Origin: Ochrobactrum sp. CM-21-5 | GTDB lineage: Bacteria > Pseudomonadota > Alphaproteobacteria > Rhizobiales > Rhizobiaceae | Reading direction: 5' to 3' | Assembly: GCF_014253075.1 (NCBI RefSeq) | Contig: NZ_JACLZJ010000001.1 | Coordinates: forward strand, 558,001 to 622,000 | Length of the DNA stretch: 64,000 nucleotides | In this document: positions 24,758 to 42,385 of the stretch, in pieces | Position numbering within the stretch: position 1 is the first letter of the stretch | Layout: every line of letters begins with the position of its first letter | Notes under the pieces: model-generated | The model's database searches: none | Told to the model about the DNA's origin: nothing | Seen by the model: only the letters and a program-made list of their open reading frames with translations | Position numbers and translations under genes: made by a program

Positions 24758-24805
24758 TGGTGCCCGGAGGCGGATTCGAACCACCGACACGCGGATTTTC
24801 AATCC
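24758..24805. repeat. attL, 48-bp direct repeat of the tRNA-Phe 3' end
   Basis: Identical to 42338-42385. It starts TGGTGCCCGGAGG and ends TTTTCAATCC, covering the CCA end, T arm, variable region and anticodon 3' side of tRNA-Phe. Sequence diverges straight afterwards (TACTT here, GCTGC at the right end). It lies 46 bases from the integrase stop. Confidence 0.95.
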
Positions 24806-24851
24806 TACTTTTTATGTTGAAAATACGCAAGAAAACGCCGAATATGTTCCA

Positions 24852-26057
24852 TTATGTTGCAGGTGCTGGCGTTCCAAGTAAGGCGTGTTGCGCCGCAGCA
24901 AGTTCGTCCGATGTGTCCGCGCCGGGGAAAAGATGGCCGTAAACGTCTGCCGTGATGCTAATAGTCGCATGCCCCATACGTGACTGAACCATCTTTAATG
25001 GCAGCCCGAGGCCGCCGTCTTCTTTGCGGTTAATCATCCAAGACGCATAGAAGTGCCTGGCGCTGTGAAGGCCGGAATACTTCGCATCTAAGATGGCTTT
25101 GCCGTCATCATCCTTCTTGCCGGTATCGACGACCACACCGGCCCTGATCTGGGCAGCCATCCAACCACGACGGCGCATGTTTGCGAGACCTTCTACCGAT
25201 CCAGCACCGGTGGGAAAGCAAAGGTTCAGCTTCCCCTTTGGACACACGTGCCGCCAGTCCTTCAAGGCATCAATGACAATTGGCGGAATCGGGATTGTAC
25301 GTTCACCGGCTTCGGACTTCGGCGCTCCGATTTCATTAAATCTGTCGGCTCGCTGACTGACGTTCACTTCGCCTTTTTTCAGGTCTACATCATCCCATCG
25401 AAGACCGCGCAGTTCCGATGCGCGTAGGCCGGCGAAGATGGCGACAAGGAACAACGGGCGCCAACGCCCTTCAAGCGCACCGATAATCGACCGAATTTCG
25501 CCCGTCGTCGGAATATCGACGCCTACCTTCAATTTGCCCTTCTGACGCTTCTCTACACGCCTATCCGCTCCGCGCGTTCTGGTCTTGGACTTTTCACGCA
25601 CCACATTGCGCACGACGAGTCCGCGGTCCTGCGCGTCGGCAAGAAGGGAGCCGAGGCTAACTAGAACCTTGCGCACCATTGCAGGCGACCGGCCTTCTTC
25701 CCGTAGCTTGTCTTCAAAAGCGCGGATGGATGCAATGTTGAGCTTGGAGAGCTTCGTTGCGCCGATGAATGGAACTATGTGCAAGTCGACGTGCTGCCGA
25801 TATTGATTAGCTGTCGTGCGCTCAAGGCCGCGGGCGTCAACCGCCGCCAGCCATAGCTCGCCCGCCTTCTTGACGGTAACGCTTTCCGATTCCGCGACAT
25901 GCACGCCTTGTCGAACTTCACCGCGTGCGGTCAGCAGAAAGTCGTCAGCGTCCTTCTTGCGTACGAATTGTTTGAAGCGGCGCTTGCCATCGCCATCCCG
26001 GTATTCGGCAAGCCACGCGATTTTTCCCGAAGGCAGGGTGCGTTTTCTAATAGCCAT
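24852..26057 (-). CDS. int: Tyrosine-type site-specific integrase
   Basis: A 401-residue phage integrase. An N-terminal AP2-like arm-binding region (MAIRKRTLPSGKIAWLAEYR) is followed by a SAM-like core-binding domain (about 65-170) and the catalytic domain (about 185-385). The catalytic Arg is in AGLRASELRG, the His-X-X-Arg is in LHSARHFYAS and the nucleophilic Tyr is in ITADVYGHLFP. It reads outward toward attL and would recombine the tRNA-Phe site. Upstream lies a short palindrome and the divergent AlpA-like gene, the usual integration/excision control arrangement. Confidence 0.95.
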   Translation of the reverse strand: MAIRKRTLPSGKIAWLAEYRDGDGKRRFKQFVRKKDADDFLLTARGEVRQGVHVAESESVTVKKAGELWLAAVDARGLERTTANQYRQHVDLHIVPFIGATKLSKLNIASIRAFEDKLREEGRSPAMVRKVLVSLGSLLADAQDRGLVVRNVVREKSKTRTRGADRRVEKRQKGKLKVGVDIPTTGEIRSIIGALEGRWRPLFLVAIFAGLRASELRGLRWDDVDLKKGEVNVSQRADRFNEIGAPKSEAGERTIPIPPIVIDALKDWRHVCPKGKLNLCFPTGAGSVEGLANMRRRGWMAAQIRAGVVVDTGKKDDDGKAILDAKYSGLHSARHFYASWMINRKEDGGLGLPLKMVQSRMGHATISITADVYGHLFPGADTSDELAAAQHALLGTPAPAT

Positions 26058-26122
26058 ATGTGTTGCATACTCGACACGCGGAATATTTGCAACATATGAA
26101 AATGGTCAAACAAAAATGAAAT

Positions 26123-26138
26123 CCATTAACGCTAATGG
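26123..26138. promoter_or_regulatory. Palindrome between int and the AlpA-like gene
   Basis: CCATTA and TAATGG arms around a 4-base centre, 66 bases upstream of the integrase start. Likely an operator or excisionase binding site. The remaining bases to 26332 contain GC-rich small hairpins (around 26185-26235) and no convincing gene. Confidence 0.45.
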
Positions 26139-26332
26139 AGCAGACAACAGTTATAGTGGGCAGAAATTTCCGACAGACTCACGTCTGGTCCGAAGGACCG
26201 CAAAGCGGTCGAAGCCGGTCCTTGGGACCAACGCCCAACGAAAAGCCGCCACCGAACCCCGCGGCACCTTTCACACCAAACCACTACCACGCCAGACGTG
26301 CGCCTTCGCGCGCTGGTCAACACGAGGACATT

Positions 26333-26536
26333 ATGCACGCTTCGAATGACAATTCGCTGGCGTCCGACCTTCTGGTGGGCGCAAAGGCAATATCAGAATT
26401 CTCGGGCTTCCCGGCCCGCACCATCTATCACCTCTGCGAAAAGGGCGTCTTCCCTCATTTTCGCGCTGGCGATCTTCTGTGCGCTCGCAAGTCGACAATC
26501 CTGCGCTGGGTATCTGATCAGGAAGGCGCGGCATGA
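26333..26536 (+). CDS. AlpA/excisionase-like MerR-type helix-turn-helix protein
   Basis: A 67-residue protein with LLVGAKAISEFSGFPARTIYHLCEKGVFPHFRAG (helices broken here for length), the pattern of HTH_17/AlpA DNA-binding proteins, followed by LCARKSTILRWV. The ATG at 26333 follows a CGAGGA ribosome-binding site. An upstream in-frame extension of 66 codons is basic, proline-rich and probably untranslated. AlpA proteins switch on excision or replication genes in phages and satellites. It overlaps the next gene by four bases. Confidence 0.8.
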   Translation: MHASNDNSLASDLLVGAKAISEFSGFPARTIYHLCEKGVFPHFRAGDLLCARKSTILRWVSDQEGAA

Positions 26537-26739
26537 AAATCACCGATTACAAACAGAACAAGGCGCGTGAAATCATCGAGGATGCCATGAGCCAGCTTAT
26601 GACTTTGGGCATGAACAACGACAACGCTGCCGGGCTATTAGTCATTCAAGGCATTATCCGCGTTGAATCGATGGAAAAGCGCAAGTCATTTTCAGAAACG
26701 GTTGCTTCATTTGCAGAAGACGCTGAGGACGATGAATGA
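26533..26739 (+). CDS. Small element protein, unknown function
   Basis: A 68-residue acidic-ended protein (MKITDYKQNKAREIIEDAMSQ..., ending AEDAEDDE). No domain recognised; mainly helical by composition. It overlaps the genes on both sides by ATGA, so it belongs to the early operon between the AlpA-like gene and the replication ATPase. Confidence 0.7.
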   Translation: MKITDYKQNKAREIIEDAMSQLMTLGMNNDNAAGLLVIQGIIRVESMEKRKSFSETVASFAEDAEDDE

Positions 26740-26996
26740 AAATAAGAAATATCCGCCTTATAGGCGAGCGCGACAGGCGAGAATTTCTCGTTCTCGCGCA
26801 GTTCAATATTGAGATTGTGCCGGGCGCTTTGCTGTACGATTTGCAGCTACATGAGGCCCCCGATGGCGGTTACTTCCTTTACACGCCGAAGAACGGTCGC
26901 GCGCCGACATCCAGTTTCTCACCTGAAGTCCGTAATCAAATCATCACGATAGCACGGGACGCCATTGAACATGCCAAATTCCGCAGCGCAGCCTGA
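26736..26996 (+). CDS. Small SpoVG-like element protein (copy 1), unknown function
   Basis: An 86-residue protein with the pattern LVLAQFNIEIVPGALLYDL ... DGGYFLYTPKNG ... FSPEVRNQIITIARDAIEH. This beta-rich arrangement followed by a C-terminal helix recalls SpoVG-type small nucleic-acid-binding proteins, and the 84-residue protein at 35738 shares the same spacing. The resemblance is by eye only. ATGA overlap with the preceding gene; its end overlaps the start of the RepA-like gene by 26 bases. Confidence 0.7.
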   Translation: MKIRNIRLIGERDRREFLVLAQFNIEIVPGALLYDLQLHEAPDGGYFLYTPKNGRAPTSSFSPEVRNQIITIARDAIEHAKFRSAA

Positions 26997-28326
26997 AGAG
27001 AACGAAGGTCTGGAAGCCGCGATTGATCGGGCTTTCATGCCTTTTGCCGATAATGACAATGGCCGACATCCCCCGCTGCTGGTTGCGTATCGCCAACAAG
27101 AACTCGACAGTAACAACAATGGCATATGGTCACCGGATGGCTCTATGCTGCGTGGTGTCCGCATCGATGACAAGACCGGCGATCTCTATGTCCACACGAA
27201 CGGCCAGATACTCTTCAAGTCGGCAGGGCAAATATACAATATTAAATGGGACCCGCTGCCGGTCATATGTCCTTGGATATGGCAGGGTGTTCCTGTGCCG
27301 CCACGACAATGGTTCATTCCTGATCTGGTTCCGATGAACACCGTTACCATCCTGAATGGTGACGGTGGCGTCGGCAAATCCCTATTGGCGCTTCAGCTTG
27401 CCGCCGCAGCGGCCATGTCCGTTGACACGCTCAATCTGGAACCGTGGGAAGGAAACGCCATTTATGTCGGTGCGGAAGATGATGACGGTGAATTTCACCG
27501 ACGGTTGGCAGACATCGCCGTGAGCCTGGGCGGTGATATGTCGGACCTATACCGGCTTCGGGTTGTCCCGCTGGCGGATCGGGATGCGCTTCTTTGCACT
27601 TTCGACAAAGAAGGAAGGCTCAAGGAAACCGATCTATGGAAGCAAATCAAGCGGTTGGCCTACCACCGTCTTCCACGCCTTATCGTTTTAGATACGGCGG
27701 CTGATTTGTATGGCGGGGACGAAATAAAGCGCGGTCAGGTCCGGCAGTTCATAGCCATGCTGCGGAAAGTGGCAATAGAACTTGAATGCGCAATCATTTT
27801 GCTTGCCCATCCTTCGGTCCAAGGGATGCAGACAGGTTCCGGCTCCTCGGGTTCGACCGCATGGAATAATTCCGTGCGTAGCCGTCTTTATATGACCAAG
27901 GGCGGCCCTGATGACGATTCCGACCTTCGCATCTTGAAAACCATGAAGGCCAATTACGGCAAGACGGGCGATGAAATCAAGTTGCGCTGGAAGGACGGCG
28001 CATTCGTTCTTGATGACGGCAAGCCTTCTGCCGCGTCAGGGCTGATCCAAGCCCATCACGAGCAGGTGTTCTTGCGCCTGTTGTCCGAAATCAACAGAAG
28101 CGGCAGGCGAGTCGCGGAAACCAAGGGAACAAACTACGCCCCTGTCGTTCTGGAAAAAATGCCGGGTGCCGAGGGCATCAAGAAGAAAGACTTCGAGGCG
28201 GCCATGAACCGGCTTTTCACTGCCGGTGAAATCAAGGTCGAAAAGGTCGGCCCGCCTTCCAATCAGCGGAAGCAGTTGGTCGTCATAGCCGATGAAATCG
28301 CAGCGGGCAGAATGGAGGCGGATTAG
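26971..28326 (+). CDS. RecA-superfamily/RepA-type replication ATPase
   Basis: A 451-residue P-loop ATPase. Walker A GDGGVGKSLLALQLA is at about residue 129 after MNTVTILN, Walker B is LIVLDTAADLYGGD at about residue 230, and the arginine/polar sensor region is AIILLAHPSVQGMQTGSGSSGSTAWNNSVRSR split across two strands. This is the AAA_25/RepA hexameric helicase family used by plasmids, phages and genomic islands. The C-terminal 100 residues may form a winged helix (FDAAMNRLFTAGEIKVEKVGP-like). It is followed immediately by an iteron array, consistent with a replication initiator/helicase acting at that site. Confidence 0.85.
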   Translation: MPNSAAQPEENEGLEAAIDRAFMPFADNDNGRHPPLLVAYRQQELDSNNNGIWSPDGSMLRGVRIDDKTGDLYVHTNGQILFKSAGQIYNIKWDPLPVICPWIWQGVPVPPRQWFIPDLVPMNTVTILNGDGGVGKSLLALQLAAAAAMSVDTLNLEPWEGNAIYVGAEDDDGEFHRRLADIAVSLGGDMSDLYRLRVVPLADRDALLCTFDKEGRLKETDLWKQIKRLAYHRLPRLIVLDTAADLYGGDEIKRGQVRQFIAMLRKVAIELECAIILLAHPSVQGMQTGSGSSGSTAWNNSVRSRLYMTKGGPDDDSDLRILKTMKANYGKTGDEIKLRWKDGAFVLDDGKPSAASGLIQAHHEQVFLRLLSEINRSGRRVAETKGTNYAPVVLEKMPGAEGIKKKDFEAAMNRLFTAGEIKVEKVGPPSNQRKQLVVIADEIAAGRMEAD

Positions 28327-28443
28327 CCTTCCACCATACCTTCGACCATCCTTCGACCATCTTCCACCATGCTCACCTACCACCCCCCCTTATACCCCCC
28401 TGTGGTGGTGGAACCACCCACCATGGTGGAAACATGGTGGAAG
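28327..28443. repeat. Iteron array, candidate replication origin of the element
   Basis: Four direct copies of CCTTCSACCAT begin at 28327, 28339, 28350 and 28360 (about 11-base spacing), followed by inverted copies ATGGTGGAA at 28423 and 28434 and a related GTGGTGGAA at 28402, around a C-rich centre. It begins one base after the RepA-like stop. Satellites and plasmids typically place Rep-binding iterons in this way. Confidence 0.7.
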
Positions 28444-28474: not shown

Positions 28475-28666
28475 ATGTCTGACGTGATCCCACTGACCGA
28501 ACAAATCAAAGCCATCCACCCGATGACAGGCAAGCCGTGCACCGTCGTCGGCGTAGATACAAGTTATGCTATGCCCCGGCTGATCATCATTAATCGTGGT
28601 CCGGGCGGTGTTTCTGCCGAAGTTGTCGATTCCGTCGAGAATGAAGAACCGCGGAGCGCAGCATGA
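28475..28666 (+). CDS. Small element protein, unknown function
   Basis: A 63-residue protein (MSDVIPLTEQIKAIHPMTG ... RGPGGVSAEVVDSVENEEPRSAA). The start ATG follows an AGGAGAAG ribosome-binding site; the longer open frame upstream would run through the iteron array and is unlikely to be coding. It overlaps the following gene by ATGA. No domain recognised. Confidence 0.7.
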   Translation: MSDVIPLTEQIKAIHPMTGKPCTVVGVDTSYAMPRLIIINRGPGGVSAEVVDSVENEEPRSAA

Positions 28667-29691
28667 TGCTCATGCTCGAAATTGAGCCCGGCCGATTTGT
28701 GAACGAAATCGCGATAACGAGGCTGGGATTGAAGCCCATCGGCCGGAGCTATGAAACCGACAGCCAGGCTATGGATGCACCAACGCCACGGAAAAAGAAA
28801 AACGCAGCACCGAAGCCCGAAAAGACTCCGCCAGCGAAAGTTATCATGGACGCGACCTTTGACTTGCCGCGAGAGGAACCGCCTGCACCAAAAACGGCTG
28901 TTCGCGAATGGCTGGCCTCGATGATGAAGGGAGCGACAGTGACGAAAATTCCAACCGTACCGCAGCCAGAACCGCGAGGATGGAAACCGCGCGAAAGGCC
29001 GAAAGCGGCCAATGATAACGAACCGGCTATTCCAGTCTGCGAGGCGCTGATCCGAGACAAGCGCCCGGATGATGCTGCGATGATAAGGCGATACATCATG
29101 CTTGTTGATGTGGCAGGCTTGCCGCAGGAAGACGTTCAAGCTGAAGTTGGTCACCAGGGGATAGACATCGCCCGGCGCAGAAGCTTTGACGACAATGGCC
29201 GGATGCGGGACCATGGGGTGCGGGAGTCGAAGAAAGTTGCGATCTCGCGCGGTGTCCGCAATAGCGTTACAGCCGAAGACGTTCCTACCCGCACACAAGC
29301 CCCCGCAGTGCCGACGATAGGCGAGGATAGTATAATCGCCTATATGGATGCGAAGGCCATCCTAGGGCCGCTACGGGCCGCGCTGGGGCCATTGCTTGAT
29401 GTGTTTGAGCTTGCGGCCCTGAGCGGCCTGACAATGACGCAGATCGGTGAGTATCGCGGGTTCAAGGGTAAGCAGGCAAGCGCCGCTGGAAAGATGGTGG
29501 TTTACATGGCCATCGACCATCTACGCGATGCGTGGAACCGGGATAGCAGGCTGGCAGCGGTGCAGGCCCGGCAAGCCAATGATGCCGTGCTAAAGGCTGG
29601 CGACATGCGTGATGCGGCGAATGTCTTATATTTCGGCAAGGACATAACCAAGAGGCCGGGAACGATCTATGGCAGGTCGAAGGCGGCTTAA
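28663..29691 (+). CDS. Element protein with C-terminal helix-turn-helix-like region, candidate late regulator
   Basis: A 342-residue protein with a low-complexity, Pro/Lys-rich N-terminal half (about 35-130). A C-terminal half contains LDVFELAALSGLTMTQIGEYRG (about 245-266, split here by helices) followed by KGKQASAAGKMVVYMAIDHL, reminiscent of sigma region 4 or a helix-turn-helix that recognises DNA. It is the last gene before a 396-bp gene-free stretch and the structural genes. A role in switching on the head genes is suggested by place only. Its stop codon lies within a 26-base palindrome. Confidence 0.65.
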   Translation: MMLMLEIEPGRFVNEIAITRLGLKPIGRSYETDSQAMDAPTPRKKKNAAPKPEKTPPAKVIMDATFDLPREEPPAPKTAVREWLASMMKGATVTKIPTVPQPEPRGWKPRERPKAANDNEPAIPVCEALIRDKRPDDAAMIRRYIMLVDVAGLPQEDVQAEVGHQGIDIARRRSFDDNGRMRDHGVRESKKVAISRGVRNSVTAEDVPTRTQAPAVPTIGEDSIIAYMDAKAILGPLRAALGPLLDVFELAALSGLTMTQIGEYRGFKGKQASAAGKMVVYMAIDHLRDAWNRDSRLAAVQARQANDAVLKAGDMRDAANVLYFGKDITKRPGTIYGRSKAA

Positions 29692-30087: not shown

Positions 30088-30483
30088 ATGAACAACTGGA
30101 CTTTGCGGGATATTACCGCTGAGGCGGCTGCGGCTGCCTGTCGAATGCCAGCCGAAACGCTGGCCACTTGGACGCATCGATATAAAGCGCCCAGCGGCAA
30201 GCGCCGGGGGTCTCGTCTTTATTCATTACAAGACCTCACAATCTTGCAGACCGCTCGTCGGCTCTTATCGCCGGGCATTCTGGCAAAGACCGCGCTGGAT
30301 ATAGCCGCGCCCCTTTTGGATGATCCGCCGGGTTATGACGCCACGCTGTTTGTGACCGACGATACGGCTTTCATCAGCAGCCGCGACGATTTTCCTGAGT
30401 GCAACTTCACGGCCATCAACGTCGGCTGGGTTGCGCACGATCTTTCTAAACGATTGGAGGCTGCCAATGGACAGACGGCCTGA
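30088..30483 (+). CDS. Small element protein with MerR-like N-terminus, unknown function
   Basis: A 131-residue protein. Residues 5-55 (LRDITAEAAAAACRMPAETLATW then RRGSRLYSLQDLTILQTARRLL, split here) resemble the winged-helix recognition part of MerR-type proteins; the remainder is unassigned. It opens the structural gene block, behind AAAAGGCAGACC. It could be a DNA-binding regulator or a small packaging protein. Confidence 0.65.
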   Translation: MNNWTLRDITAEAAAAACRMPAETLATWTHRYKAPSGKRRGSRLYSLQDLTILQTARRLLSPGILAKTALDIAAPLLDDPPGYDATLFVTDDTAFISSRDDFPECNFTAINVGWVAHDLSKRLEAANGQTA

Positions 30484-31925: not shown

Positions 31926-31931
31926 CCAAAC

Positions 31932-32324
31932 TTGGTTTCACTGAAACGAGAATACAATGGTGAGGAAAAAACCTTTACCGTTGCCGATCCCCTATTGTTC
32001 GAAGTTCTGACGCCTAATCGTTCGACTTATGCATTTCTGCAAAAGTTTACGGCAGGGCTTTGGTCGACTGCTGACGTTGCATTCGTGCTTTCGTATGCCC
32101 TGCATGGCCCGTCGAAACAGATCTTGTCCTATTGGCCCATTTTCCGGCGAGCGGCTATAGAGACCGGGTCGCATGGGATGATGAGCACGCTACGCTACAC
32201 TCCCCATCCTGACGTGGTCGCCACTGTTTCAAAGGCACCGGGCGACTTTGCTCCCATCGCCGTCGATATCCTCACCGAGCTGGTTTTCGGCGAAGGCGCA
32301 TCTATGGAGGCAGACGATGAGTAA
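31932..32324 (+). CDS. Unknown protein between portal and prohead protease
   Basis: A 130-residue protein that begins with TTG (VSLKREYNGEEKTFTVADP follows); no in-frame ATG is near. It has a conserved-looking hydrophobic core (LQKFTAGLWSTADVAFVLSYAL). The composition faintly recalls small tail-assembly-chaperone proteins of gene transfer agents (Phage_TAC_11), but it sits inside the head module. It overlaps the protease gene by 8 bases, so it is coexpressed. Function unassigned. Confidence 0.65.
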   Translation: MVSLKREYNGEEKTFTVADPLLFEVLTPNRSTYAFLQKFTAGLWSTADVAFVLSYALHGPSKQILSYWPIFRRAAIETGSHGMMSTLRYTPHPDVVATVSKAPGDFAPIAVDILTELVFGEGASMEADDE

Positions 32325-32835
32325 CACGCTTGCAGCGGTGGAACTCGACGTCAAGTCGGTGCAGGAGGATGGCACGTTCTCCGGCTACGCGGCTGTCTTT
32401 GGCACTAAGGACTCGGGCGGTGACATCATCCGCAAGGGCGCTTTTGCCGCTTCGCTTGCTGCCGTTCCAGCGGCTCGCGTGAAGCTTCTTTGGCAGCATG
32501 TTCGCGATGAACCTATCGGCGTGTGGACGTCTTTCACCGAAGACGACCACGGGCTCAAAGCCGAGGGCCGCCTGATTCTTGAAACGGCGCGTGGTCGTGA
32601 AGCTCATGCGCTGATGAAGGCCGGGGCACTGGACGGCCTGTCCATCGGCTTTCGCACGGTGAGAGCATCACAGGACAGCACTAAACAGGCCCGCATCCTC
32701 GAAGAAGTTGCGCTCAAGGAAGTGTCGCTGGTGACCTTCCCTATGCACCCAGACGCCACCGTCTCCAACGTTAAATCCGACAACGAAACCATTGCCGCCA
32801 TCCGTGCGGCCACTCAGGCAATTAAGGAAATCTAA
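32317..32835 (+). CDS. HK97-family prohead protease
   Basis: A 172-residue serine protease of the HK97/U35 type that matures the capsid. GYAAVFGTKDSGGDIIRKGAF begins the fold, the catalytic His is in LLWQHVRDEPIG (about residue 65), and the Ser is in DGLSIGFRT (about residue 109). It lies between portal and capsid as in HK97, and its stop shares a base with the capsid start (TAATG). Confidence 0.93.
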   Translation: MSNTLAAVELDVKSVQEDGTFSGYAAVFGTKDSGGDIIRKGAFAASLAAVPAARVKLLWQHVRDEPIGVWTSFTEDDHGLKAEGRLILETARGREAHALMKAGALDGLSIGFRTVRASQDSTKQARILEEVALKEVSLVTFPMHPDATVSNVKSDNETIAAIRAATQAIKEI

Positions 32836-34979: not shown

Positions 34980-35044
34980 GCGCCCCACAATTCACATTTC
35001 TCCCTAATTGGGAATTTCATCCTTTCATAATAGGAATAAAAACC

Positions 35045-35356
35045 ATGGCAATTGTCGATTTGGCCGCCATGAAGGCCGAGCTTGGCATCACGGATTCAGT
35101 CGATGATGCCCTTATTTCTTCAAAAATCGCTGCCGCGCAGGCGCATCTCGAAGCGCTTCTCGGATTTGAGATCGAGCCGCAATACCCGGACGGCGCACCC
35201 GCTGACCTTATTGGCGCCGTCAAGATGTTGGCTGCCGGTTGGTATGAAAACCGTGAGTCTACGCTGGTCGGATTGTCCGGAATGGAGACTCCGCATGGCG
35301 TCTGGGAAATCGTCAATAACCGCCGCAATTATTGGGGGGTGAGCAATGGCGCGTAA
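35045..35356 (+). CDS. Head-tail connector protein (HK97 gp6-like)
   Basis: A 103-residue Phage_connect_1-type protein: MAIVDLAAMKAELGITDSVDD, then AAAQAHLEALLGF, DLIGAVKMLAAGWYENRES and a C-terminal WEIVNNRR. These small helical proteins form the ring under the portal. It overlaps the next gene by 11 bases. Confidence 0.88.
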   Translation: MAIVDLAAMKAELGITDSVDDALISSKIAAAQAHLEALLGFEIEPQYPDGAPADLIGAVKMLAAGWYENRESTLVGLSGMETPHGVWEIVNNRRNYWGVSNGA

Positions 35357-35741
35357 ACGTGATTTGCAGGGCCTGATTGATGCCTTGAACTCTATCCCGA
35401 AAGCCGTGCGTGCCAAGATCGATCCCGCCATTGAAAAGGGTGCCGATGAAATGGTTGCGAGAATGCGGCTGCTCGTGCCGGACGATCCTAAAACGAGCGG
35501 CAAAGACCTGAAGGCCAGCATCAAGAAGATTGATTCCGGCGTGCCGATGGCGATCCGTGTTCAGGCCGTTGACGAGAACCCTGACGACGGTTTCGACGTC
35601 GCTTTGGGCCAAGAATACGGAACTGAGAAGATGAATGCGCAGCCCTTCTTTTGGCCGTCCGTCAGCACCACGAAAAAGCGTGTCCGTCGTCGCATCGACC
35701 GGGCGATTTCCAAGGCCGTTGGGGAGGCTTTTAAGAAATGA
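35346..35741 (+). CDS. HK97 gp10-family head-tail/tail completion protein
   Basis: A 131-residue protein with the gp10-family layout: LQGLIDALNSIPKAVRAKIDPA, GADEMVARMRLLVPDDP, then the EYGTEKMNAQPFFWPSV signature at about residue 88. Family members sit at the head-tail interface or finish tails. Start overlaps the connector gene, end overlaps the next gene by four bases. Confidence 0.88.
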   Translation: MARKRDLQGLIDALNSIPKAVRAKIDPAIEKGADEMVARMRLLVPDDPKTSGKDLKASIKKIDSGVPMAIRVQAVDENPDDGFDVALGQEYGTEKMNAQPFFWPSVSTTKKRVRRRIDRAISKAVGEAFKK

Positions 35742-35992
35742 ACATTGAAATTACTCGCATGAATAGCACTCACGTCACATGCGCACGCTCGACGATCGTG
35801 GCTGCATTCGACGCCCGCGTCGGAGATTTTAAAATTCACAATGCGCAGGTGCGCTTGAACCACGACAGCGGTGAATTGTTTGTCACACTACCGGGCAGGC
35901 AAAAAGGTGGGATTTCCTTGAGGTTTGGCGAATTGAGAAGCGCGATTGGTTCCGCTGCTCTCGCCGCATACGGGGAATTGGCCAATGTCTGA
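35738..35992 (+). CDS. Small SpoVG-like element protein (copy 2), unknown function
   Basis: An 84-residue protein with TIVAAFDARVGDFKIHNAQV ... DSGELFVTLPGRQKGG ... FGELRSAIGSAALAAYGE. The spacing of Phe, Gly-Glu/Gly-Tyr, Pro and the final helix matches the protein at 26736. It is not a usual head-module gene. ATGA overlaps with the gene before, 8-base overlap with the gene after. Confidence 0.65.
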   Translation: MNIEITRMNSTHVTCARSTIVAAFDARVGDFKIHNAQVRLNHDSGELFVTLPGRQKGGISLRFGELRSAIGSAALAAYGELANV

Positions 35993-36398
35993 GCCCAGCC
36001 TTTCAGCCCAGAAGCTACTCGTCGACACGCTGCGCGCCCGACCTGGCATCACGGCGCTGGTGCCGGCCGCTAATATCTTCGACCGCAACACGCTGCCCGA
36101 GGCATTCCCTTGCATAATTATTGGCGAGGGACAGACCGTGGAAGACGACGCCGAATGCGTCATCGGAAGCGAAGTTTACATGACGCTGCACGTCTGGACG
36201 ACCGAGCCCGGCATGGCGAATTGTAAGCTGATCGCAGGCGAGATTAGGCGGGCCGTCAAGAACCTGTCGGCTGTGGTCGAGGGTATCGCCTTGGACGCGT
36301 TCTTTCAGGATACCAATTTCATGCGCGGCACGACTGGCGATAACGCCCATGGCGTCGTCACCATCAAGTTTCTGGCAGAAGACACGGTGAACGTATGA
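35985..36398 (+). CDS. DUF3168-family tail completion protein
   Basis: A 137-residue protein of the DUF3168/minor-capsid-completion type: LLVDTLRARPGITALVPAANIFD, PEAFPCIIIGEGQTVEDD and VYMTLHVWTTEPGMANCKLIAGEIRRAV (split across strands). Relatives act at the head-tail junction or cap the tail tube. The ATG at 35985 follows a GGGGAAT ribosome-binding site. Confidence 0.85.
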   Translation: MSEPSLSAQKLLVDTLRARPGITALVPAANIFDRNTLPEAFPCIIIGEGQTVEDDAECVIGSEVYMTLHVWTTEPGMANCKLIAGEIRRAVKNLSAVVEGIALDAFFQDTNFMRGTTGDNAHGVVTIKFLAEDTVNV

Positions 36399-36715
36399 GA
36401 GCGGGCAAGCTTGATAAAGTCATCACCCTGCAGCGCACGACTTACGTGGATGATGGCTATGGCGGGCAGATACCCGTCAACGAGGATTTCGCGACGATGC
36501 GCGCGCAGTTGGTGCAGGCCAATACAGAAGAATTCCTTCGCGCGTGGGGCGCTTCAGCGGAGACGGCCGTCATCTTCCGTACGAGATATCGCGCTGATTT
36601 GAACACGAAAGTGCGCGTCGTCTACGAAGGTGATGGCTATGACATCGTGGAATTGAAGCCCATCGGTCGTAACCGTGGCTGGGAACTGCGCTGCAAAGCA
36701 AGGCCGGGCTCATGA
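36395..36715 (+). CDS. Head-closure/head-tail adaptor protein (Phage_H_T_join)
   Basis: A 106-residue SPP1 gp16-like adaptor: MRAGKLDKVITLQRTTYVDDGYGG and the later RTRYRADLNTKVRVVYEGDGYDIVELKPI with the typical conserved Arg and Gly. It closes the head and receives the tail. ATGA overlaps on both sides. Confidence 0.88.
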   Translation: MRAGKLDKVITLQRTTYVDDGYGGQIPVNEDFATMRAQLVQANTEEFLRAWGASAETAVIFRTRYRADLNTKVRVVYEGDGYDIVELKPIGRNRGWELRCKARPGS

Positions 36716-37116
36716 AGGGACGGAAAGCTGAAGTCAAGGCGGTGGACGGTGCGCTTAGCAAGGTTCCATCTGCCCCTGCCTGGCTGCCTAAGCATGCCAA
36801 GGCCGAGTGGCGGCGGGTTCTGCCGCAGCTTGTTGCTGACCGAAAGATCGCAGCGCATGAGCTTAGCACGGTGGAAGCTTATTGCCTTGCCGTGGCACGA
36901 ACCCGCGAAGCCGAAGAAGCTCTTCAAAAGTACGGCCTGACCTTCGAGTCGGACAGTGGTCCGAAACGGCGGCCTGAAACCACCATTCTCAAAGAAAACA
37001 TTGAAGCGGCCCGACGTCTAGCTGCAGAGTTAGGTCTGACGCCAGCTTCGCGCACCAAGAATAAAGGAGGCGCGCCGGGTGACGGAGAAGCTTCCGAATT
37101 TGGCGTGGATATTTGA
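36712..37116 (+). CDS. Terminase small subunit (P27 family)
   Basis: A 134-residue P27-type small terminase: PAWLPKHAKAEWRRVLPQLVADRKIAAHELS and EAYCLAVARTREAEEALQKYGLTFESD (split), then ILKENIEAARRLAAELGLTPASR. It recognises the packaging site. It overlaps the large terminase gene by 38 bases. The terminase pair lies after the connector genes rather than before the portal. Confidence 0.9.
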   Translation: MKGRKAEVKAVDGALSKVPSAPAWLPKHAKAEWRRVLPQLVADRKIAAHELSTVEAYCLAVARTREAEEALQKYGLTFESDSGPKRRPETTILKENIEAARRLAAELGLTPASRTKNKGGAPGDGEASEFGVDI

Positions 37117-38683
37117 CGACAGCCCGATTCCCGATCCTCACGGCAAGGGCGAAGCTGCCGTCAAATTTATCCGTGCTCTAAAGCATCCAAAATCAGATCT
37201 GCCGGGACGGGCGTTCGTCCTTGATCGGTGGCAAGAGCGCATAGTGCGCAAGGTTTATGGTGATACCGCCGAGGACGGTACGCGGAAAATCCAAGAGCTT
37301 TTCCTGATGGTGGGGCGTGGCAACCGCAAGACAAGTCTTATGGCTGCCTGCCTCATGCTTCATCTGATCGGGCCGGAACGTGTTCCAATGTCTTCGGTCA
37401 GTAGCATTGCCAATGCCCGCGATCAGGCTGGCTTGACGTTTCGCGAAATGGCCGGGATATGCCGAGCAACGCCGCGCATAACGGAAGCGGTGCATATTCA
37501 GGACAGCGCCAAGCGTATCACATACACCAAGCACAACATTGTCTATGAGGCGCTTTCGTCCGACGCCAAGTCTGCACACGGTCGCTCTGACGTCGTGGTG
37601 TTTTGGGATGAAGGTCACTGCGAAACTAAGTTCGACCTTATTGAAGCAGCCGAAACGACGCTCAATAAGGGACAGAATACCCTTCTTCTTTCTGCATCGA
37701 CTGCAGGCATCGGCCAGCTCGGGCCGTTCTATGCGAAATATGATCATGCGCGGAAAATCGTCGATGGCAGAATTCAGGATGAAACATTCCTGCCCATCTT
37801 GTTTGAAGCGCCGCGTGACGTCGATTTCAGAGACGAGGAATGGCTATTCGCCACCAATCCGGGCTTGCGGCACGGGTATCCGAATATCCGGAAGCTGCGG
37901 CGCTATATTGAGAAGTGCGAACATAGCCCGAGCGAACGCGAAAGCTTCAAGCGCCTTCACTTATCGGTATGGCTCGACGGTGCTGCCAATCCTGAATGGG
38001 ATCTGGCGATTTGGGACGAAGGGCACGGCGACGTAGACTTAGAAATACTGCGAGGCCGCAAGGCTTGGATTGCCGCCGACTTGTCCAAGCGTATCGACCT
38101 CACGGCGGTGACGGCAACAATCGAACTGGACGACGACAAATATGCAATCCATTGCATGGGTTTCACCCCTGAGAGCCAGTTGCGCAAGAGGGCCGATAAT
38201 GATTCCGCGCCTTATCCGCTTTGGGTGGAGCAAGGATGGCTGAAGGCTTGTCCAGGCGACATCGTCGACCGGCTCATTGTGGAAGATTACATTCGCTTTC
38301 TTTGTGAAATCTTCGACGTGCAAGAGTGCGTTTTTGACCGGGCACTGGCGCGGGAAATCATGGAGAACTTAGAGGCAAGCGGGTTCCCGGTTTCTGAGTT
38401 TCCTCAAACCCTGATGAACTTCGCCAAGCCGGTAGATACGTTTGAAGACATGTTCCTGAACCGCCGTCTTGTTCACGATTCTCCGCTTCTGCGCTGGGCC
38501 GTTGGCAATACGGTCATGATGCGTGACCAGAGCGACAACCGGCGTCCAGCCAAAAACAAGTCTGCCGACCGCATCGACCCTTGCGTGGCTGCCATCATGA
38601 GTACCGCTAGAGCCGAGCAAGGCGCATCTGGCCGTTCGTCCTATGACGACGCGCCTGAAGATTATGAATTCTTCTCAGCATAG
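37079..38683 (+). CDS. Terminase large subunit
   Basis: A 534-residue terminase ATPase-nuclease of the type paired with P27 small subunits. The Walker A-like [10 protein letters not shown] (about residue 75) and Walker [10 protein letters not shown] (about residue 172) are visible, followed by motif [12 protein letters not shown]. The nuclease half has [16 protein letters not shown] and a C-terminal acid-rich region ([10 protein letters not shown]). The GTG start lies within the small terminase gene. Length is normal, with no frameshift, so the packaging motor looks intact. Confidence 0.92.
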
Positions 38684-38691
38684 GAGGCCAG

Positions 38692-40674
38692 ATGGCCAAT
38701 AACGAATCTCGGAAATTGATGGTCGATGTCGTCGCGCGCATCGACAAACTCGAGAAGGCAATGAAGCGCGGCGCGCAAGTTACTGACCAACAGATGGGCA
38801 AGGTGGAAAAGCGCGCGAAGACGATGGTGGTGCGGCTGGACAAACAGTTTTCCGACCTCGCGGCAAACTTCGGTAAGGGCTTCCTTGCTGGTCTGGGCGC
38901 ACTGGGTGTCGGTGGTATTGCAGGCGCAATCCAGAACGTCGCCCGCAGCTTTGCGGATCTCGGCCGTGAGGCCAAAATGGCCGGTGTGGATGTCGAGGAT
39001 TTCCAGCGGTGGCGGTACGTTGCCGACCAGAACCGCATTGGCATCGACGCCCTGACCGACGGTTTCAAGGAGCTGTCCTTGCGTGCTTCAGAGTATGTAA
39101 CGACCGCAGGTAAGTCAGGCAGCGCCGCCGACGCGTTCCGTCAATTGGGCCTTTCCCCGCAGGAGGTACAGGAGCGTATTAAAGACCCGTCGAAGTTCAT
39201 GCTCGAGCTTATCGACCGCGTGCAGCGGCTAAAGAATACGGCGAAGGGCATTCAGATATTCGACGAACTTTTCGGCGGTCAGGGCGGTGAGCAATTTGTG
39301 CAGCTTATCGAGCAAGGCAGGCAGGGCATTTCTGCCACCCTCAAAGAAGCCGACGCTATGGGTGTTGTTTTCGATAAGGAGTGGATTGAAAAATCCGCGG
39401 AGATCGATCGGTCGTTCAACCGCCTGGCGACCACGATGGGCACGGCGGTCAAAGGCGCTATTGTTGAGGCTGCGACGGCCCTTGAAGGTTTTATTTCGTC
39501 ATGGAACGCTCTGAATGAAAAAAGCGTGTCGGGCCTCAAGGCAGAGCTGGAAATTCTCAAGCAAGGCCGTGAACGATTAGCCACGACACAGCCAGCAGGT
39601 GGTCTTCAGGACACGATTGCCGGTGTCTTCGGCAAGGACCGCGAAAGCCAGCTTGCGGCAATTGCTGCCAAGGAAAAGGTAATCAACGACGAGCTCGAGC
39701 GCCGACAGGCTATTGTCCTTAAAACGGTCGAGATCGAAGGCGCACCCTACAAGCCTTTGGCCGCCCCGACATCTGGCAAATCCGATGCTGAAAAGGCCCG
39801 CGAGAAGGCAGCAAAACAGGCCGAGCGTGAGCGCAAAGCCGTCACCGACTTGATAAAAGAGCTGGAATTTGAAGCCAGCCTTGTAGGCAAGACCGCCGTC
39901 CAAAAAGAACAAATGATAGCCGTGAGGCATGCGGGGGCCGCCGCTACGGCTGTGGAAAAAGCTCAGATCGAGTCGCTGGTCGAAAGCACCTATCGTGCCA
40001 ACGAAGCTCATGAGCGCCAGAAGGAAGCTCTACAGGAGCTCAATGACGCCGGGCGAGACTTCGCCGGTACGCTGGTCGATGGCTTGCTAGAGGGTGCCAA
40101 AGCGTCCGACGTGCTGTCCAACGCGCTGGGCCAACTGGCCGACCGCTTCTTGAACTCCGGCCTCGATGCTCTTTTTGGTGGCGGCGGCATCGGCGGGATA
40201 TTCGGCAGTGTATTCGGCGGCGGGAAATCAGACCCGTGGGCGGGGCTTCGCGGCTTCGACAGCGGCGGCTATACCGGCGCGGGTGGTAAATACCAGCCAG
40301 CGGGCGTCGTTCACAAAGGCGAAGTTGTGTGGTCACAGAATGACGTTCGTCGTGCTGGCGGTGTCGGCACGGTCGAAGCCATGCGTCGCGGCCTTGCTGG
40401 TTACGACCGTGGCGGTGCCGTCAGCATACCTTCACTCTCAGCGCCGCGTATGCCGGACCTTTCGCGCATTACGAATAACAATAATAACACGACGACGAAC
40501 AGCGCACCCGTGATCAACGTGACTGTGAATGGTGCCACCGGCAATGCGGAAGTGTCAGCAATGGTCAATCAGGGGCTGACAAAGGGGCTTGCAGAATGGC
40601 AGCGGACTCCGCAGTTCGCAATGTCAGTCGGGCGGGGCGTGCAAACTGCCCGCCAAAAAGGCTATATTAGGTAA
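38692..40674 (+). CDS. Tail tape measure protein
   Basis: A 660-residue helical protein beginning 8 bases after large terminase. The N-terminal coiled region ([23 protein letters not shown]) is followed by a hydrophobic Gly-rich patch (about 65-85). Then come the TMP-type [14 protein letters not shown] / [14 protein letters not shown] section, a long helical charged segment (about 350-460), and a C-terminal Gly-rich [24 protein letters not shown] repeat typical of lambda-like tape measures. By the 1.5 angstrom per residue rule it would set a tail of roughly 100 nm. No tail tube gene accompanies it. Confidence 0.88.
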
Positions 40675-40675
40675 T

Positions 40676-40697
40676 GAGGCGCCCTTCGGGGCGTCTC
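40676..40697 (+). terminator. Stem-loop closing the structural block
   Basis: GAGGCGCCC TTCG GGGCGTCTC, a stable tetraloop hairpin 2 bases after the tape measure stop. It overlaps the end of the convergent gene at 40696 and may end both transcripts; the T-run is weak. Confidence 0.7.
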
Positions 40698-41010
40698 ACT
40701 TATCCGACTTGAAACAGGCCAGCTCAATGCGATTGCGGAAGGAATCAACCGCACGCGCTTGGTGTGTCTTGGTGCTATAGGCGGGCTGTTCGTATGCCTG
40801 AGTCACGATCTGGCGGCTGATGGAATCTTTCTCACCTTCAGCCGCAATTTCAATAACCCGGCTCATTGGGGTTTCCATCTGGCGCAACTGCATAATTTTA
40901 GCCGCGAGATCGCCCCAGCGTTTGCATACCTTATCGGCATTGGCGGTATTTTCCGCCTGCGCGACGCTGGTCGATAGCAAGACGGCTGCGATGAGAAATG
41001 CGTGCTTCAT
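40696..41010 (-). CDS. Secreted small protein, probable lysogenic-conversion (moron) gene
   Basis: A 104-residue protein with a clear signal peptide (MKHAFLIAAVLLSTSVAQA) and mature part ENTANADKVCKRWGDLAAKI... with two cysteines. It is convergent to the structural genes, so it is likely expressed independently. No family recognised; the periplasmic destination suggests a host-altering role rather than particle assembly. Confidence 0.75.
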   Translation of the reverse strand: MKHAFLIAAVLLSTSVAQAENTANADKVCKRWGDLAAKIMQLRQMETPMSRVIEIAAEGEKDSISRQIVTQAYEQPAYSTKTHQARAVDSFRNRIELACFKSDK

Positions 41011-41066: not shown

Positions 41067-41288
41067 TCAGTCCTTTACAATTATTCCGACGGCAGTTTCA
41101 CCGAGAAATTCGATACCGGCCTTTTCAAGGGCGGCGCGGATGGCCTGAAGATTGTTTGCTATCGGGACCCTTCGACCCTTTTCGAAATCTCGCACGGTGG
41201 AAAGGCTTACGTTTGCCGCCTCGGCTAGCTGTGTCTGGGACCAATCTAATAGACCACGGGCGCCGCGAGATTGTTCAGGCGTAAGCAT
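41067..41288 (-). CDS. XRE-family transcriptional repressor
   Basis: A 73-residue helix-turn-helix protein ([41 protein letters not shown], split by helices, then [20 protein letters not shown]). The ATG at 41288 gives the usual short Cro/C1 start; an upstream in-frame extension of 34 codons is possible but crosses operator-like repeats. It diverges from 41434 and probably keeps the element quiescent; it lacks the cleavable C-terminal domain of LexA-sensitive repressors. Confidence 0.85.
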
Positions 41289-41319
41289 GGTGAACGCAAT
41301 CCTAATATTTTTTGCTAAC

Positions 41320-41338
41320 GTCAACGATTTTTGTTGAC
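41320..41338. promoter_or_regulatory. Operator-like inverted repeat between divergent repressor and 41434 gene
   Basis: GTCAAC and GTTGAC separated by 7 bases, with a half-like site (ATCAACG) at about 41364. Position fits repressor control of the divergent promoters. Confidence 0.5.
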
Positions 41339-41433
41339 GGGCGCGTTTTTGATGATTATTCATAACATCAACGAAAAGCACTGACAACAACAGTTGCCAA
41401 TCATAGTTAATACACCGTTACGAGGAGACCACA

Positions 41434-41718
41434 ATGCCACGCAGCAACGCGCCGGCAGCCGGGAGAGGCTTGCCCAGACCTACATATGGAGACCTGGAAA
41501 GTCAGATGTGGGATGCGAAGAACGCGGTTGAAATCGCTGACCTTGCGACCGAAAGACTGCTTCCATCAATTGCGAAAATGTATCCGCAGTTCGCTGACGA
41601 GATCAGGATTGCAAACTATGCGCTGCGCAATGCGACAAACCAGATGAATGCGCTTGCTGAGGAAATTCTCGCGGGCATTCACGCTGAATTTGATGCTGAG
41701 AAGGCAGGTGCGGCATGA
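41434..41718 (+). CDS. Small element protein, unknown function
   Basis: A 94-residue helical protein (MPRSNAPAAGRGLPRPTYGD then LESQMWDAKNAVEIADLATERLL). A CGAGGAGACC ribosome-binding site is excellent. It diverges from the repressor and is therefore likely derepressed on induction. It overlaps the next gene by ATGA. Confidence 0.75.
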   Translation: MPRSNAPAAGRGLPRPTYGDLESQMWDAKNAVEIADLATERLLPSIAKMYPQFADEIRIANYALRNATNQMNALAEEILAGIHAEFDAEKAGAA

Positions 41719-41942
41719 CCACCGATCAGACGATATTCTACGACGTAAGCAACAACGTGTCGGAGGTTAAAGCCCTTGCAGATACGCTGGTCTATCTGGA
41801 CACGGGCGACCGCGAATTATGTGAGCGCGCCTACCCTTATCTGATCCGTATCCTTGCCGACAAAATCCAAGAGCTCGACAAGGCGCATGACCAGTTAGAA
41901 ACAGAGTTCCTCACGCTTCGGCGCAACCAGCGCCCGTCCTAA
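41715..41942 (+). CDS. Small element protein, unknown function
   Basis: A 75-residue acidic helical protein (MTTDQTIFYDVSNNVSEVKA...). Coupled to the preceding gene, ending 7 bases before tRNA-Arg. Similar charge and helical pattern to its neighbour; the pair could act together. No known domain. Confidence 0.7.
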   Translation: MTTDQTIFYDVSNNVSEVKALADTLVYLDTGDRELCERAYPYLIRILADKIQELDKAHDQLETEFLTLRRNQRPS

Positions 41943-41949
41943 CGAATCT

Positions 41950-42026
41950 GGTCCCGTAGCTCAGTTGGATAGAGCGTCAGCCTTCTAAGCTGAATGTCAC
42001 AGGTTCGAATCCTGTCGGGATCGCCA
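41950..42026 (+). tRNA. tRNA-Arg (anticodon TCT), carried by the element
   Basis: A complete 77-base cloverleaf with encoded CCA: acceptor GGTCCCG / CGGGATC, D arm TAGCTCAGTTGGATAGAG, anticodon loop CTTCTAA in a five-pair stem, T arm AGGTTCGAATCCT. The TCT anticodon reads AGA/AGG. It lies inside the element's att limits. Confidence 0.95.
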
Positions 42027-42047
42027 TAAATCCGGCCTAACCAGCCG

Positions 42048-42284
42048 GGAGGTTCGCAAATTTGCGAACCTCCACCAAAACACGAGGAGATAAACCCCTG
42101 CCCAAATCTGGGCAGGGTAGCCCGACCGGCCATGGCGCTGGCGTAAACCATCCGGCGGTCGCCGGTCGGGCAAGAATCAACCGATAACGTGTTGCAACGA
42201 TGTTGCATGGACAACGATGTAACACGTTGAAAAGCCCGGAAAACGTGGGTTTGTGTTGCACGACGTTGCAACATGTTTTCGGGC
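42048..42284. repeat. Cluster of five large inverted repeats between tRNA-Arg and attR
   Basis: In order: a perfect 26-base palindrome (42048-42073, arm GGAGGTTCGCAAA); 9-base arms CCCTGCCCA (42096-42117); 11-base arms GCCCGACCGGC (42120-42171); near-perfect arms AACGTGTTGCAACGATGTT with a later mirrored copy (42186-42228); and GCCCG...CGGGC closing a region rich in GTTGCA motifs (42234-42284). No gene is visible here. Confidence 0.75.
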
Positions 42285-42337
42285 TAAATCATAAGCCTAT
42301 CAGTGGGTTAGTTCTTTGAATTTGTTGGGTAATTTAA

Positions 42338-42385
42338 TGGTGCCCGGAGGCGGATTCGAACCACCGACACGCGGATTTTCAATCC
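42338..42385. repeat. attR, 48-bp direct repeat within tRNA-Phe
   Basis: Identical to attL at 24758-24805; lies inside the tRNA-Phe gene from the CCA end to the anticodon stem. Confidence 0.95.

What the first reader, a model, noticed from the sequence alone, without database searches (positions are those of the whole stretch)
24758..42385. Capsid-encoding phage-satellite-like element that lacks tail and lysis genes
Seen: intact att repeats, integrase, AlpA-like protein, RepA-type ATPase with iterons, and a full HK97 head set (portal, protease, capsid, connectors, both terminases), all with open frames. Not seen: tail tube, baseplate, fibres, holin, endolysin. Known: capsid-forming phage-inducible islands (cf-PICIs) make their own heads and take a helper's tails. 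Inference: this is such a satellite in a Brucellaceae host, where I am not aware of a described example.
Basis: partly seen in the sequence, partly recalled or inferred. Interest (0 to 1): 0.85.

Follow-up and report, generated by a model that had tools for sequence, protein, structure and literature searches.

The report
Phage satellite with own tail ruler
This looks like a 17.6-kb virus parasite in a bacterial chromosome that makes its own virus head and its own tail-length ruler protein but seems to need the rest of the tail from a helper virus; in two related bacteria the far end of that ruler is identical or nearly identical to that of a complete virus in the same cell.

Summary
The island is real: a 48-bp exact att repeat in tRNA-Phe, integrase, AlpA-like protein, RepA-like ATPase with iterons, and a complete HK97-type head and packaging set. 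"No tail genes" is wrong. It encodes a 660-aa tape measure protein (TMP; PHROG 10574, E 3e-139), a tail completion protein (TCP), a tail terminator and a candidate tail chaperone. No tail tube, tip, fibre or lysis gene was recognised.

The portal-to-TMP cassette recurs in six further distinct islands (dN/dS mostly 0.02-0.2), and the tRNA site is empty in at least five relatives, so a fresh deletion derivative is unlikely. It works like a capsid-forming satellite (cf-PICI).

What looks new is the TMP mosaic: residues 1-40 follow the island's own TCP (Mantel r 0.93), the core moves between islands with distantly related heads, and the C-terminus is exchanged. In Limoniibacter the island's last ~133 TMP residues equal those of a complete prophage in the same genome (400 bp, 99.75%); a second genome shows 89%; seven other testable elements show no close match. 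I propose a bridge: N-terminus in the satellite neck, C-terminus in the helper tail tip. No helper was found for this window. Satellite TMP genes are already published (Nature 2026).

The parts
24758..24805 (.). attL, 48-bp copy of the tRNA-Phe 3' end
   Evidence: exact repeat of 42338-42385
24852..26057 (-). tyrosine integrase
   Evidence: PHROG 1 E 1e-62, PF00589; 90% identical to the integrase of the Falsochrobactrum island, which lies between the same flanks
26135..26536 (+). AlpA-like HTH protein
   Evidence: PHROG 18541 E 7e-18, family of unknown function; a protein of the embedded satellite C28a hits the same family plus PHROG 66 excisionase; the name AlpA is by resemblance
26965..28326 (+). 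RepA-like AAA_25 ATPase, replication
   Evidence: PF13481 E 7e-33
28327..28442 (.). iteron-like repeats, candidate replication origin
   Evidence: 4 x 10-11 bp direct repeats plus inverted copies
28663..29691 (+). 342-aa protein of unknown function
   Evidence: no family hit; 73-83% in four related islands
30088..30483 (+). MerR-like regulator
   Evidence: PHROG 2474, PF13411
30705..31925 (+). portal protein
   Evidence: PF04860 E 4e-80
31932..32324 (+). candidate tail assembly chaperone (TAC)
   Evidence: two orthologues hit Phage_TAC_11 at E 0.003 and 0.031, below its cut-off, and the window copy itself does not; profile comparison with seven TACs E 4.5e-4, probability 33%
32248..32835 (+). 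prohead protease S78
   Evidence: PF04586 E 3e-34
32835..33974 (+). HK97-fold major capsid protein
   Evidence: PF05065 E 6e-60; PDB capsid chains E down to 2e-99
34122..34934 (+). HNH endonuclease fused to an AAA_33 kinase-like domain
   Evidence: PHROG 2323 and PF13671
35045..35356 (+). gp6-like head-tail connector
   Evidence: PF05135 E 6e-14
35346..35741 (+). tail completion protein (TCP), HK97 gp10 family
   Evidence: PHROG 5 E 5e-12, PF04883 E 1.7e-4
35946..36398 (+). tail terminator, gp17 type
   Evidence: PF11367 E 6e-20, PHROG 176
36395..36715 (+). head closure/stopper
   Evidence: PF05521 E 2e-21
36712..37116 (+). small terminase
   Evidence: PF05119 E 5e-23
37079..38683 (+). large terminase
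   Evidence: PHROG 9 E 2e-115
38692..40674 (+). tape measure protein (TMP), three-part mosaic
   Evidence: PHROG 10574 E 2.8e-139; aa 487-625 align to residues 693-827 of the tape measure chain of PDB 8iyk, E 1e-9 (that it is lambda gpH is recalled); mosaic profile
40696..41010 (-). small protein, apparent signal peptide by eye, PHROG 2315 (unknown)
41067..41390 (-). HTH regulator, candidate repressor
   Evidence: PF01381 E 4e-9
41950..42026 (+). tRNA-Arg (TCT) carried inside the island
   Evidence: ARAGORN and Rfam
42338..42413 (-). tRNA-Phe (GAA) with attR at its 3' end (42338-42385)

Best explanation
The island is an integrated, helper-dependent capsid-forming phage satellite. Once derepressed it would excise, replicate from RepA and iterons, build its own HK97-type head, package its DNA with its own TerS/TerL/HNH, and cap the head with its own connectors. 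It then directs assembly of a hybrid tail. Its own TMP, with its own TCP and tail terminator and probably its own chaperone, is wrapped in tail tube and mounted on the tail tip supplied by a siphophage helper, which also supplies lysis. The TMP acts as a bridge. Its N-terminus fits the satellite's TCP/neck, its length sets the tail, and its C-terminus must fit the helper's tip, so the C-terminal segment is exchanged by recombination with helper phages. Shown here: gene content, conservation, purifying selection, empty sites, TMP mosaicism, TCP/TMP-N covariation, and two same-genome C-terminal identities in related elements. Inferred: induction, excision, helper dependence, hybrid particles, and the functional reason for the swaps.
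For: Gene families. Portal-to-TMP cassette in 6 further distinct close islands (L063, L064, L070-L073; portal 88-95%, TMP present in 6 of 6). Purifying selection, for example portal dN/dS 0.04-0.07, capsid 0.04-0.06, TCP 0.02-0.12, TMP 0.04-0.11 in the 4 of 6 comparisons not saturated. tRNA-Phe site empty in G008, G033, G034, G026, G031 (flank matches 147-181 bp apart) and probably G032 (194 bp, part of the left flank missing); occupied by the Falsochrobactrum island in G004. TCP identity follows TMP residues 1-40 (Mantel r 0.93, p 0.0002), not residues 80-500 (r 0.18, p 0.13), over 16 elements. The last 130 TMP residues are 100% (Limoniibacter) and 89% (G050) identical to a same-genome prophage with tip genes. 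These are the top two of 525 island-phage pairs; the next is 51%, and 11 of the 525 pairs are same-genome. L071, whose TMP end is closest to C28b-like tip phages (47-50% over 60 aa), also carries a homologue of a C28b tip-region protein right after TMP. Literature passages: the 80alpha TMP N-terminus forms a sheet with TCP (PMC11661146), and the lambda gpH C-terminus lies in the tip (PMC10721106).
Against: No helper for this window was found: its TMP C-terminus is 23% identical to the complete resident prophage C28b and 43% (last 130 aa) or 60% (last 60 aa) to the C23-type element, in which no hub was found. Of the 9 island elements whose genome is known and has another TMP in the set, only 2 show a close same-genome match; direct own-genome searches for 4 of the others gave at best 53% over 33 residues (G032) and 40% over 136 (G083). 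The embedded satellite C28a does not match the prophage in which it sits (23%). C-terminal segments also correlate with TCP, more weakly (r 0.52-0.55). One of the six sister islands (L071) has a tip-region gene, so the line between satellite and phage is not sharp. No excision or packaging data.
Confidence: 0.72

Rival explanations
1. It is a deletion derivative of a complete siphophage prophage that has lost tube, tip and lysis genes and is decaying.
For: Tail terminator, TCP and TMP are genes of complete siphophages; in phage phi2LM21 the tip genes follow TMP, where the island ends. L071 still has one tip-region homologue after TMP.
Against: The portal-to-TMP cassette recurs in 6 further distinct islands, with dN/dS mostly 0.02-0.2 at dS often near 1; no tube, distal tail, hub or lysis homologue was found in them with 19 queries, though little DNA after TMP is held for some (L073 none). 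No phage record in the phages collection matches 31000-40674 in megablast, and no portal hit there reaches 60% identity.
Confidence: 0.07
2. It is an autonomous small phage whose tail tube, tip and lysis proteins are too divergent to recognise.
For: 11 of 28 ORFs have no PHROG match; some related elements (G032, G004:C22, G020) carry tube-like genes.
Against: The unassigned ORFs are 68-342 aa, 7 of 11 lie upstream of the portal, and none is large enough for a hub of several hundred residues. Of ten compared, five (68, 124, 97, 94 and 75 aa) have no match in any of six sister loci, though the last two are present in the fuller L070 contig (L123).
Confidence: 0.1
3. The TMP mosaic is neutral phage recombination: breakpoints in a fast-evolving gene leave a 5' piece linked to terL and a 3' piece that any homologous TMP can replace, without helper matching.
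For: Only 2 of 9 testable elements match a resident phage closely; the TMP 5' end lies next to terL, so linkage alone could keep it with the head genes; C28a does not match its own surrounding prophage.
Against: Both close matches are to same-genome phages with tips and stop within 4 bp of the end of TMP. In L064 the N-terminus (88%) and TCP (77-82%) stayed while tail terminator and head closure changed (54%, 50%). In L121 versus C28a, TCP (90%) and TMP N (87%) agree while the core (23%) does not.
Confidence: 0.3

Closest known systems
Capsid-forming PICIs (cf-PICIs; Alqurainy et al. 2023, not held, known here through other papers and recall)
   Same: Integrase, AlpA-like protein, replication gene, own capsid, protease, portal, connectors, TerS, TerL and HNH; no tail tube, tip or lysis genes recognised.
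   Different: Carries TMP, TCP, tail terminator and a candidate TAC; replication protein is an AAA_25 ATPase without a visible primase part; alphaproteobacterial host; helper unknown.
PLEs of Vibrio cholerae with chimeric tails (PMC12987554; sections 6, 8, 9 and passages read)
   Same: Satellite-encoded TMP and TAC used with a helper's tail; the legend of Extended Data Fig. 10 says that a sampling of cf-PICIs encode putative tmp genes.
   Different: PLEs use ICP1 capsid proteins and contractile ICP1 tails, and the PLE11 TMP is 20% identical to ICP1's. Here the satellite has its own head genes and, in two relatives, the TMP C-terminus is identical or nearly so to a resident siphophage's.
Putative E. 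coli capsid-gene satellites with TMP (PMC10448857, passages)
   Same: Satellite with capsid genes and putative TMP but no full tail.
   Different: Those lack terminases, protease, AlpA and head-tail adapters; this island has them.
Helper-embedded PICIs (PMC10111431, passages)
   Same: Related satellites here (G000:C28, G020:C2) sit in late genes of prophages.
   Different: The window island sits in tRNA-Phe, and its integrase points outward, unlike the inward orientation described there for PICIs.

Membership tests
cf-PICI (features as listed in PMC10690885, PMC13230959 and PMC10448857 passages) | own major capsid protein, head protease, portal | tested here: met
cf-PICI | own head-tail connectors/closure | tested here: met
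   gp6, gp10, gp17 and head-closure families
cf-PICI | own TerS, TerL and HNH endonuclease | tested here: met
   the HNH is fused to a kinase-like domain
cf-PICI | integrase and AlpA homologue at an att site | tested here: met
   AlpA assignment is weak (PHROG 18541, unknown function)
cf-PICI | Pri-Rep replication initiator | tested here: inconclusive
   453-aa AAA_25 ATPase only; PHROG primase/helicase hits start at residue 105 or later
cf-PICI | Stl-like regulator | tested here: inconclusive
   an HTH_3 protein at 41067-41390; Stl homology not tested
cf-PICI | no tail genes; depends on the helper for the whole tail | tested here: not met
   TMP, TCP and tail terminator present. PMC12987554 reports that some cf-PICIs also encode putative tmp, so this feature may be too strict
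cf-PICI | induction by a helper, small capsids, packaging of the island | not testable with these tools
   needs a bench test
cf-PICI | SatelliteFinder call or capsid phylogeny with known cf-PICIs | not tested
   program and reference set not at hand
Gene transfer agent (features recalled) | no integrase or att, fixed chromosomal locus | tested here: not met
   integrase, att repeat and empty sites
Complete temperate siphophage | tail tube, tip hub and lysis genes | tested here: not met
   none recognised among 28 ORFs or with 19 protein queries

The most novel reading that the evidence does not exclude
Satellite tape measure proteins are modular adaptors. The first ~40-60 residues are locked to the satellite's own tail completion protein, the core is a shared satellite module that sets tail length, and the C-terminal ~60-130 residues are repeatedly captured from the helper's tape measure, so that one satellite head-and-neck can be fitted to the tail tip of whichever phage is resident. 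The TMP C-terminus would then be a readable label of a satellite's recent helper.
Probability: 0.45. Interest if true: 0.78.

Novelty: new variant of a known kind. Interest (0 to 1): 0.62.

Why it matters
The PLE study leaves open how a satellite makes the helper's tail accept its own tape measure (PMC12987554, section 9). The mosaic found here offers a concrete answer for capsid-forming satellites and makes helper assignment testable from sequence alone: read the last ~130 residues of the satellite TMP and look for the phage that shares them. It also corrects the view of this island as tail-less and describes a family of such elements in Brucellaceae and related hosts; whether the founding cf-PICI survey already listed them was not checked.

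Tried and rejected
Gene transfer agent: rejected because of integrase, att repeat and empty sites. Resident prophage C28b as this island's helper: TMP C-terminus only 23%. C23-type element as helper: best match for the last 60 residues (60%, rank 1 of 35 TMPs) but only 43% over 130. In the C23 element no hub was found: downstream lie a distal tail protein, a 353-aa unknown, DUF892, a catalase and one 130-residue fibre-like fragment about 15 kb on; in G023, G029 and G003 no same-strand ORF above 272 aa follows TMP in the 7-8 kb read. So it may be a satellite itself. Search for a donor phage of the window's own C-terminus in IMG/VR (18 loci): the seven loci that match over 137-161 of 161 residues at 63% or more are islands already known (L117-L120, L123), the embedded satellite L121, and the island-like L122; the others match short stretches or are weaker, and I annotated 8 of the 18. 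A first BLAST screen with a 60% cut missed the Limoniibacter pair, probably because its HSP was extended; direct alignment showed it. Structure prediction of the candidate chaperone was tried three times (not completed) and dropped. Megablast of the structural half against phages gave nothing.

Choices made: L069 (99-100% in all 27 genes compared with the window) and L074 (same values as L064) were left out of the TMP statistics as duplicates; one search used 18 elements, one search used 16 (L065, L066, L068 dropped, L121 added), and segment pairs with fewer than 20 aligned residues were set to 20%. In some searches non-island TMPs were used: 32 of the 40 loci plus C28b, C23 and phage phi2LM21; the 8 others (G099, G093b, G079, G073, G034, G118, G047, G174) were left out by my judgement. 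At least 4 of the 35 (C23, G023C21, G029C4, G003C11) are C23-type and may not be complete phages; they also figure in 4 of the 6 prophage-prophage control pairs. The 15 island elements in those calls include G028 and G050, whose borders I did not map.
Full report
1. What is there. The window is G000:C1:558001-622000 of a 4.28-Mb genome in 28 contigs. The island is bounded by a 48-bp exact repeat, 24758-24805 and 42338-42385, the second being the 3' end of tRNA-Phe. Families: integrase, AlpA-like protein, AAA_25 ATPase, MerR-like regulator, portal, S78 protease, HK97 capsid, HNH fused to an AAA_33 domain, gp6 connector, gp10-type TCP, gp17-type tail terminator, head closure, TerS, TerL, and an HTH protein. 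Iteron-like repeats follow the ATPase gene (28327-28442). 17 of 28 scanned ORFs have a PHROG hit at E 0.001.

2. Correction. The gene after terL, 38692-40674, is a tape measure protein: PHROG 10574 over residues 8-546 at E 2.8e-139, plus 14 further families, 11 of them annotated as tape measure. Residues 487-625 align with residues 693-827 of the 853-residue tape measure chain in PDB 8iyk (E 1.3e-9); that this is lambda gpH is recalled. The 130-aa protein between portal and protease is a candidate tail assembly chaperone: two orthologues hit Phage_TAC_11 weakly (E 0.003, 0.031), below the curated cut-off, and the window copy does not. A profile comparison of 8 orthologues with 7 TACs gives E 4.5e-4 at probability 33%. 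So the island supplies TMP, TCP, tail terminator and perhaps TAC. 19 tube, distal tail, hub, fibre and lysis proteins from neighbouring phages and satellites gave no tblastn match in it.

3. Probably not a decaying prophage. IMG/VR gave 9 loci, 6 of them close (88-100%). In all of these 8 close loci (6 distinct islands besides the window once two duplicates are removed) the cassette portal to terL to TMP is present, while integration and replication genes vary. The 19 tail and lysis queries found nothing in 5 of the 6; in L071 they found a homologue (about 31%) of a C28b tip-region protein of unknown function just after TMP. The DNA held after TMP ranges from none (L073) to about 10 kb (L123, the L070 contig). 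Nei-Gojobori dN/dS against 6 loci is mostly 0.02-0.2 across the structural genes, 0 for TerS in two, up to 0.26 for the candidate TAC, and undefined where saturated. In 35 genomes of the genus, the own one included, the right flank is found in 35 and the left in 34. The flank matches lie 147-181 bp apart in G008, G033, G034, G026 and G031, and 194 bp apart in G032 with part of the left flank missing; in G004 about 17.9 kb, the Falsochrobactrum island, lies between them. I did not classify the other genomes.

4. The TMP is a mosaic. Identity of the window TMP per 40 residues: the Limoniibacter and Falsochrobactrum islands, whose capsids are 94% and 93% identical, share residues 1-40 at 95% and 88%, but residues 80-360 at 30-61% and 5-25%. 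Five elements with distantly related heads (G032, G004:C22, G020, G083, G028) share residues 1-80 at only 22-48%, but 46 of their 55 blocks between 80 and 520 are at 50-88%. The embedded satellite C28a in the same genome is close only over residues 480-640, at 57, 85, 90 and 58%. L121, an embedded satellite with another TCP, is 88-100% identical over 80-280 and 82-98% over 360-600, yet 26-40% over residues 1-80 and 34-38% over 280-360.

5. The N-terminus follows the TCP. Over 16 elements, TCP identity correlates with TMP residues 1-40 (Mantel r 0.93, p 0.0002; Spearman 0.58) and not with residues 80-500 (r 0.18, p 0.13). The C-terminal segments give r 0.55 and 0.52. Tail terminator identity correlated about as well with residues 1-60 in the earlier set of 18 (Pearson 0.90 against 0.92 for TCP), so the whole neck travels together; the case that separates them is L064, where tail terminator (54%) and head closure (50%) differ from the window while TCP (77-82%) and TMP N-terminus (88%) do not. 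L121 and C28a agree in TCP (90%) and TMP N (87%) but not in the core (23%). In phage 80alpha the TMP N-termini (residues 1-37 modelled) form a sheet with the TCP, which that paper equates with HK97 gp10 (PMC11661146, passages).

6. The C-terminus is exchanged with complete phages. In Limoniibacter the last ~133 TMP residues of the island are identical to the TMP of a prophage in the same genome; 400 bp at 99.75% end within 4 bp of the end of the gene. That prophage has homologues of portal, capsid, tube, TAC, the protein after TMP in phi2LM21, a 1020-aa tip protein (Phage-tail_3, E 5e-19), fibre and endolysin. In G050 the last 130 residues are 89% identical to a resident prophage with portal, capsid, tube, distal tail, a 1003-aa tip protein and fibre (364 bp, 85.7%). 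Outside the last 150 residues both TMP pairs are 25-28% identical. Among 525 island-phage TMP pairs these are the top two (100 and 89; next 51), and 11 of the 525 pairs are same-genome. Six same-genome prophage-prophage pairs give 21-30%. In lambda the gpH C-terminus lies in the tail tip (PMC10721106, passages). L071 adds a hint: its TMP end is closest to phages of the C28b tip kind (47-50% over 60 residues), and it carries a homologue of a C28b tip-region protein after TMP.

7. What does not fit. For the window island no helper was identified. Its last 60 residues are closest to the C23-type TMP of the same genome (60%), which belongs to an element in which no hub was found; the complete prophage C28b is at 18-23%. 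Seven of nine elements with a known genome show no close match to the same-genome phage TMPs in the set; own-genome searches for four of them found at best 53% over 33 residues and 40% over 136. C28a does not match the prophage it sits in. Linkage of the TMP 5' end to terL could explain part of the N-terminal pattern.

8. Literature. PLE satellites carry TMP and TAC, incorporate their TMP into chimeric tails, and lose 96-99.9% of transduction without it; the legend of Extended Data Fig. 10 says that a sampling of cf-PICIs encode putative tmp genes (PMC12987554: sections 6, 8, 9 and passages read). So a TMP in a cf-PICI-like element is not new. I found no report of a satellite TMP whose C-terminus is taken from a resident phage, nor of a cf-PICI in Brucellaceae, in the listings of searches of an open-access library and the passages I opened; the founding cf-PICI paper is not held and was not read.

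9. Verdict. Probably a capsid-forming satellite (works like a cf-PICI; strict membership fails on 'no tail genes' and is open on the replication protein) that carries a bridging tape measure. New variant of a known kind.

Noticed in passing
G000:C28:47474-63519 (L034, L035): A second satellite in the same genome lies between a siphophage prophage's terL and portal, flanked by a 16-bp repeat whose left copy is in the 3' end of terL. It carries its own capsid, TerS, TAC, TCP and TMP; no portal, protease or TerL was recognised among ten of its ORFs scanned or by BLAST with the window's proteins.
   Followed up: partly
G020:C2:773388-789918 (L043): Another satellite seems to interrupt a prophage terL: a 466-aa part on one side matches TerL by BLAST, a 192-aa part on the other resembles the C28 TerL start by eye. 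It has a tube-like gene 63% identical to that of the C23 element.
   Followed up: partly
G000:C23:227849-252826 and like elements in G016, G023, G029, G003: C23-type elements carry a TMP above 1000 aa and a distal tail protein (tube and TAC also seen in G000 and G016) but no hub was found in the stretches read; perhaps satellites with a longer tail set.
   Followed up: partly
L120:10645-12231 (IMG/VR island L071): Just after TMP, a 529-aa frame about 31% identical to a tip-region protein of unknown function of prophage C28b; no Pfam hit.
   Followed up: partly
34122-34934: HNH endonuclease fused to an AAA_33 kinase-like domain; in the other close distinct islands the match covers only 37-42%, the HNH part.
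   Followed up: no
40696-41010: Small protein with an apparent signal peptide (PHROG 2315, unknown function) just after TMP on the other strand; homologues are found near other satellite TMPs such as L121, G020 and G008.
   Followed up: no
41950-42026: tRNA-Arg (TCT) inside the island near attR; L123 (the L070 island) carries one at the same place.
   Followed up: no
L122:8439-10432: In one IMG/VR island the TMP gene reads as two ORFs; described only.
   Followed up: no
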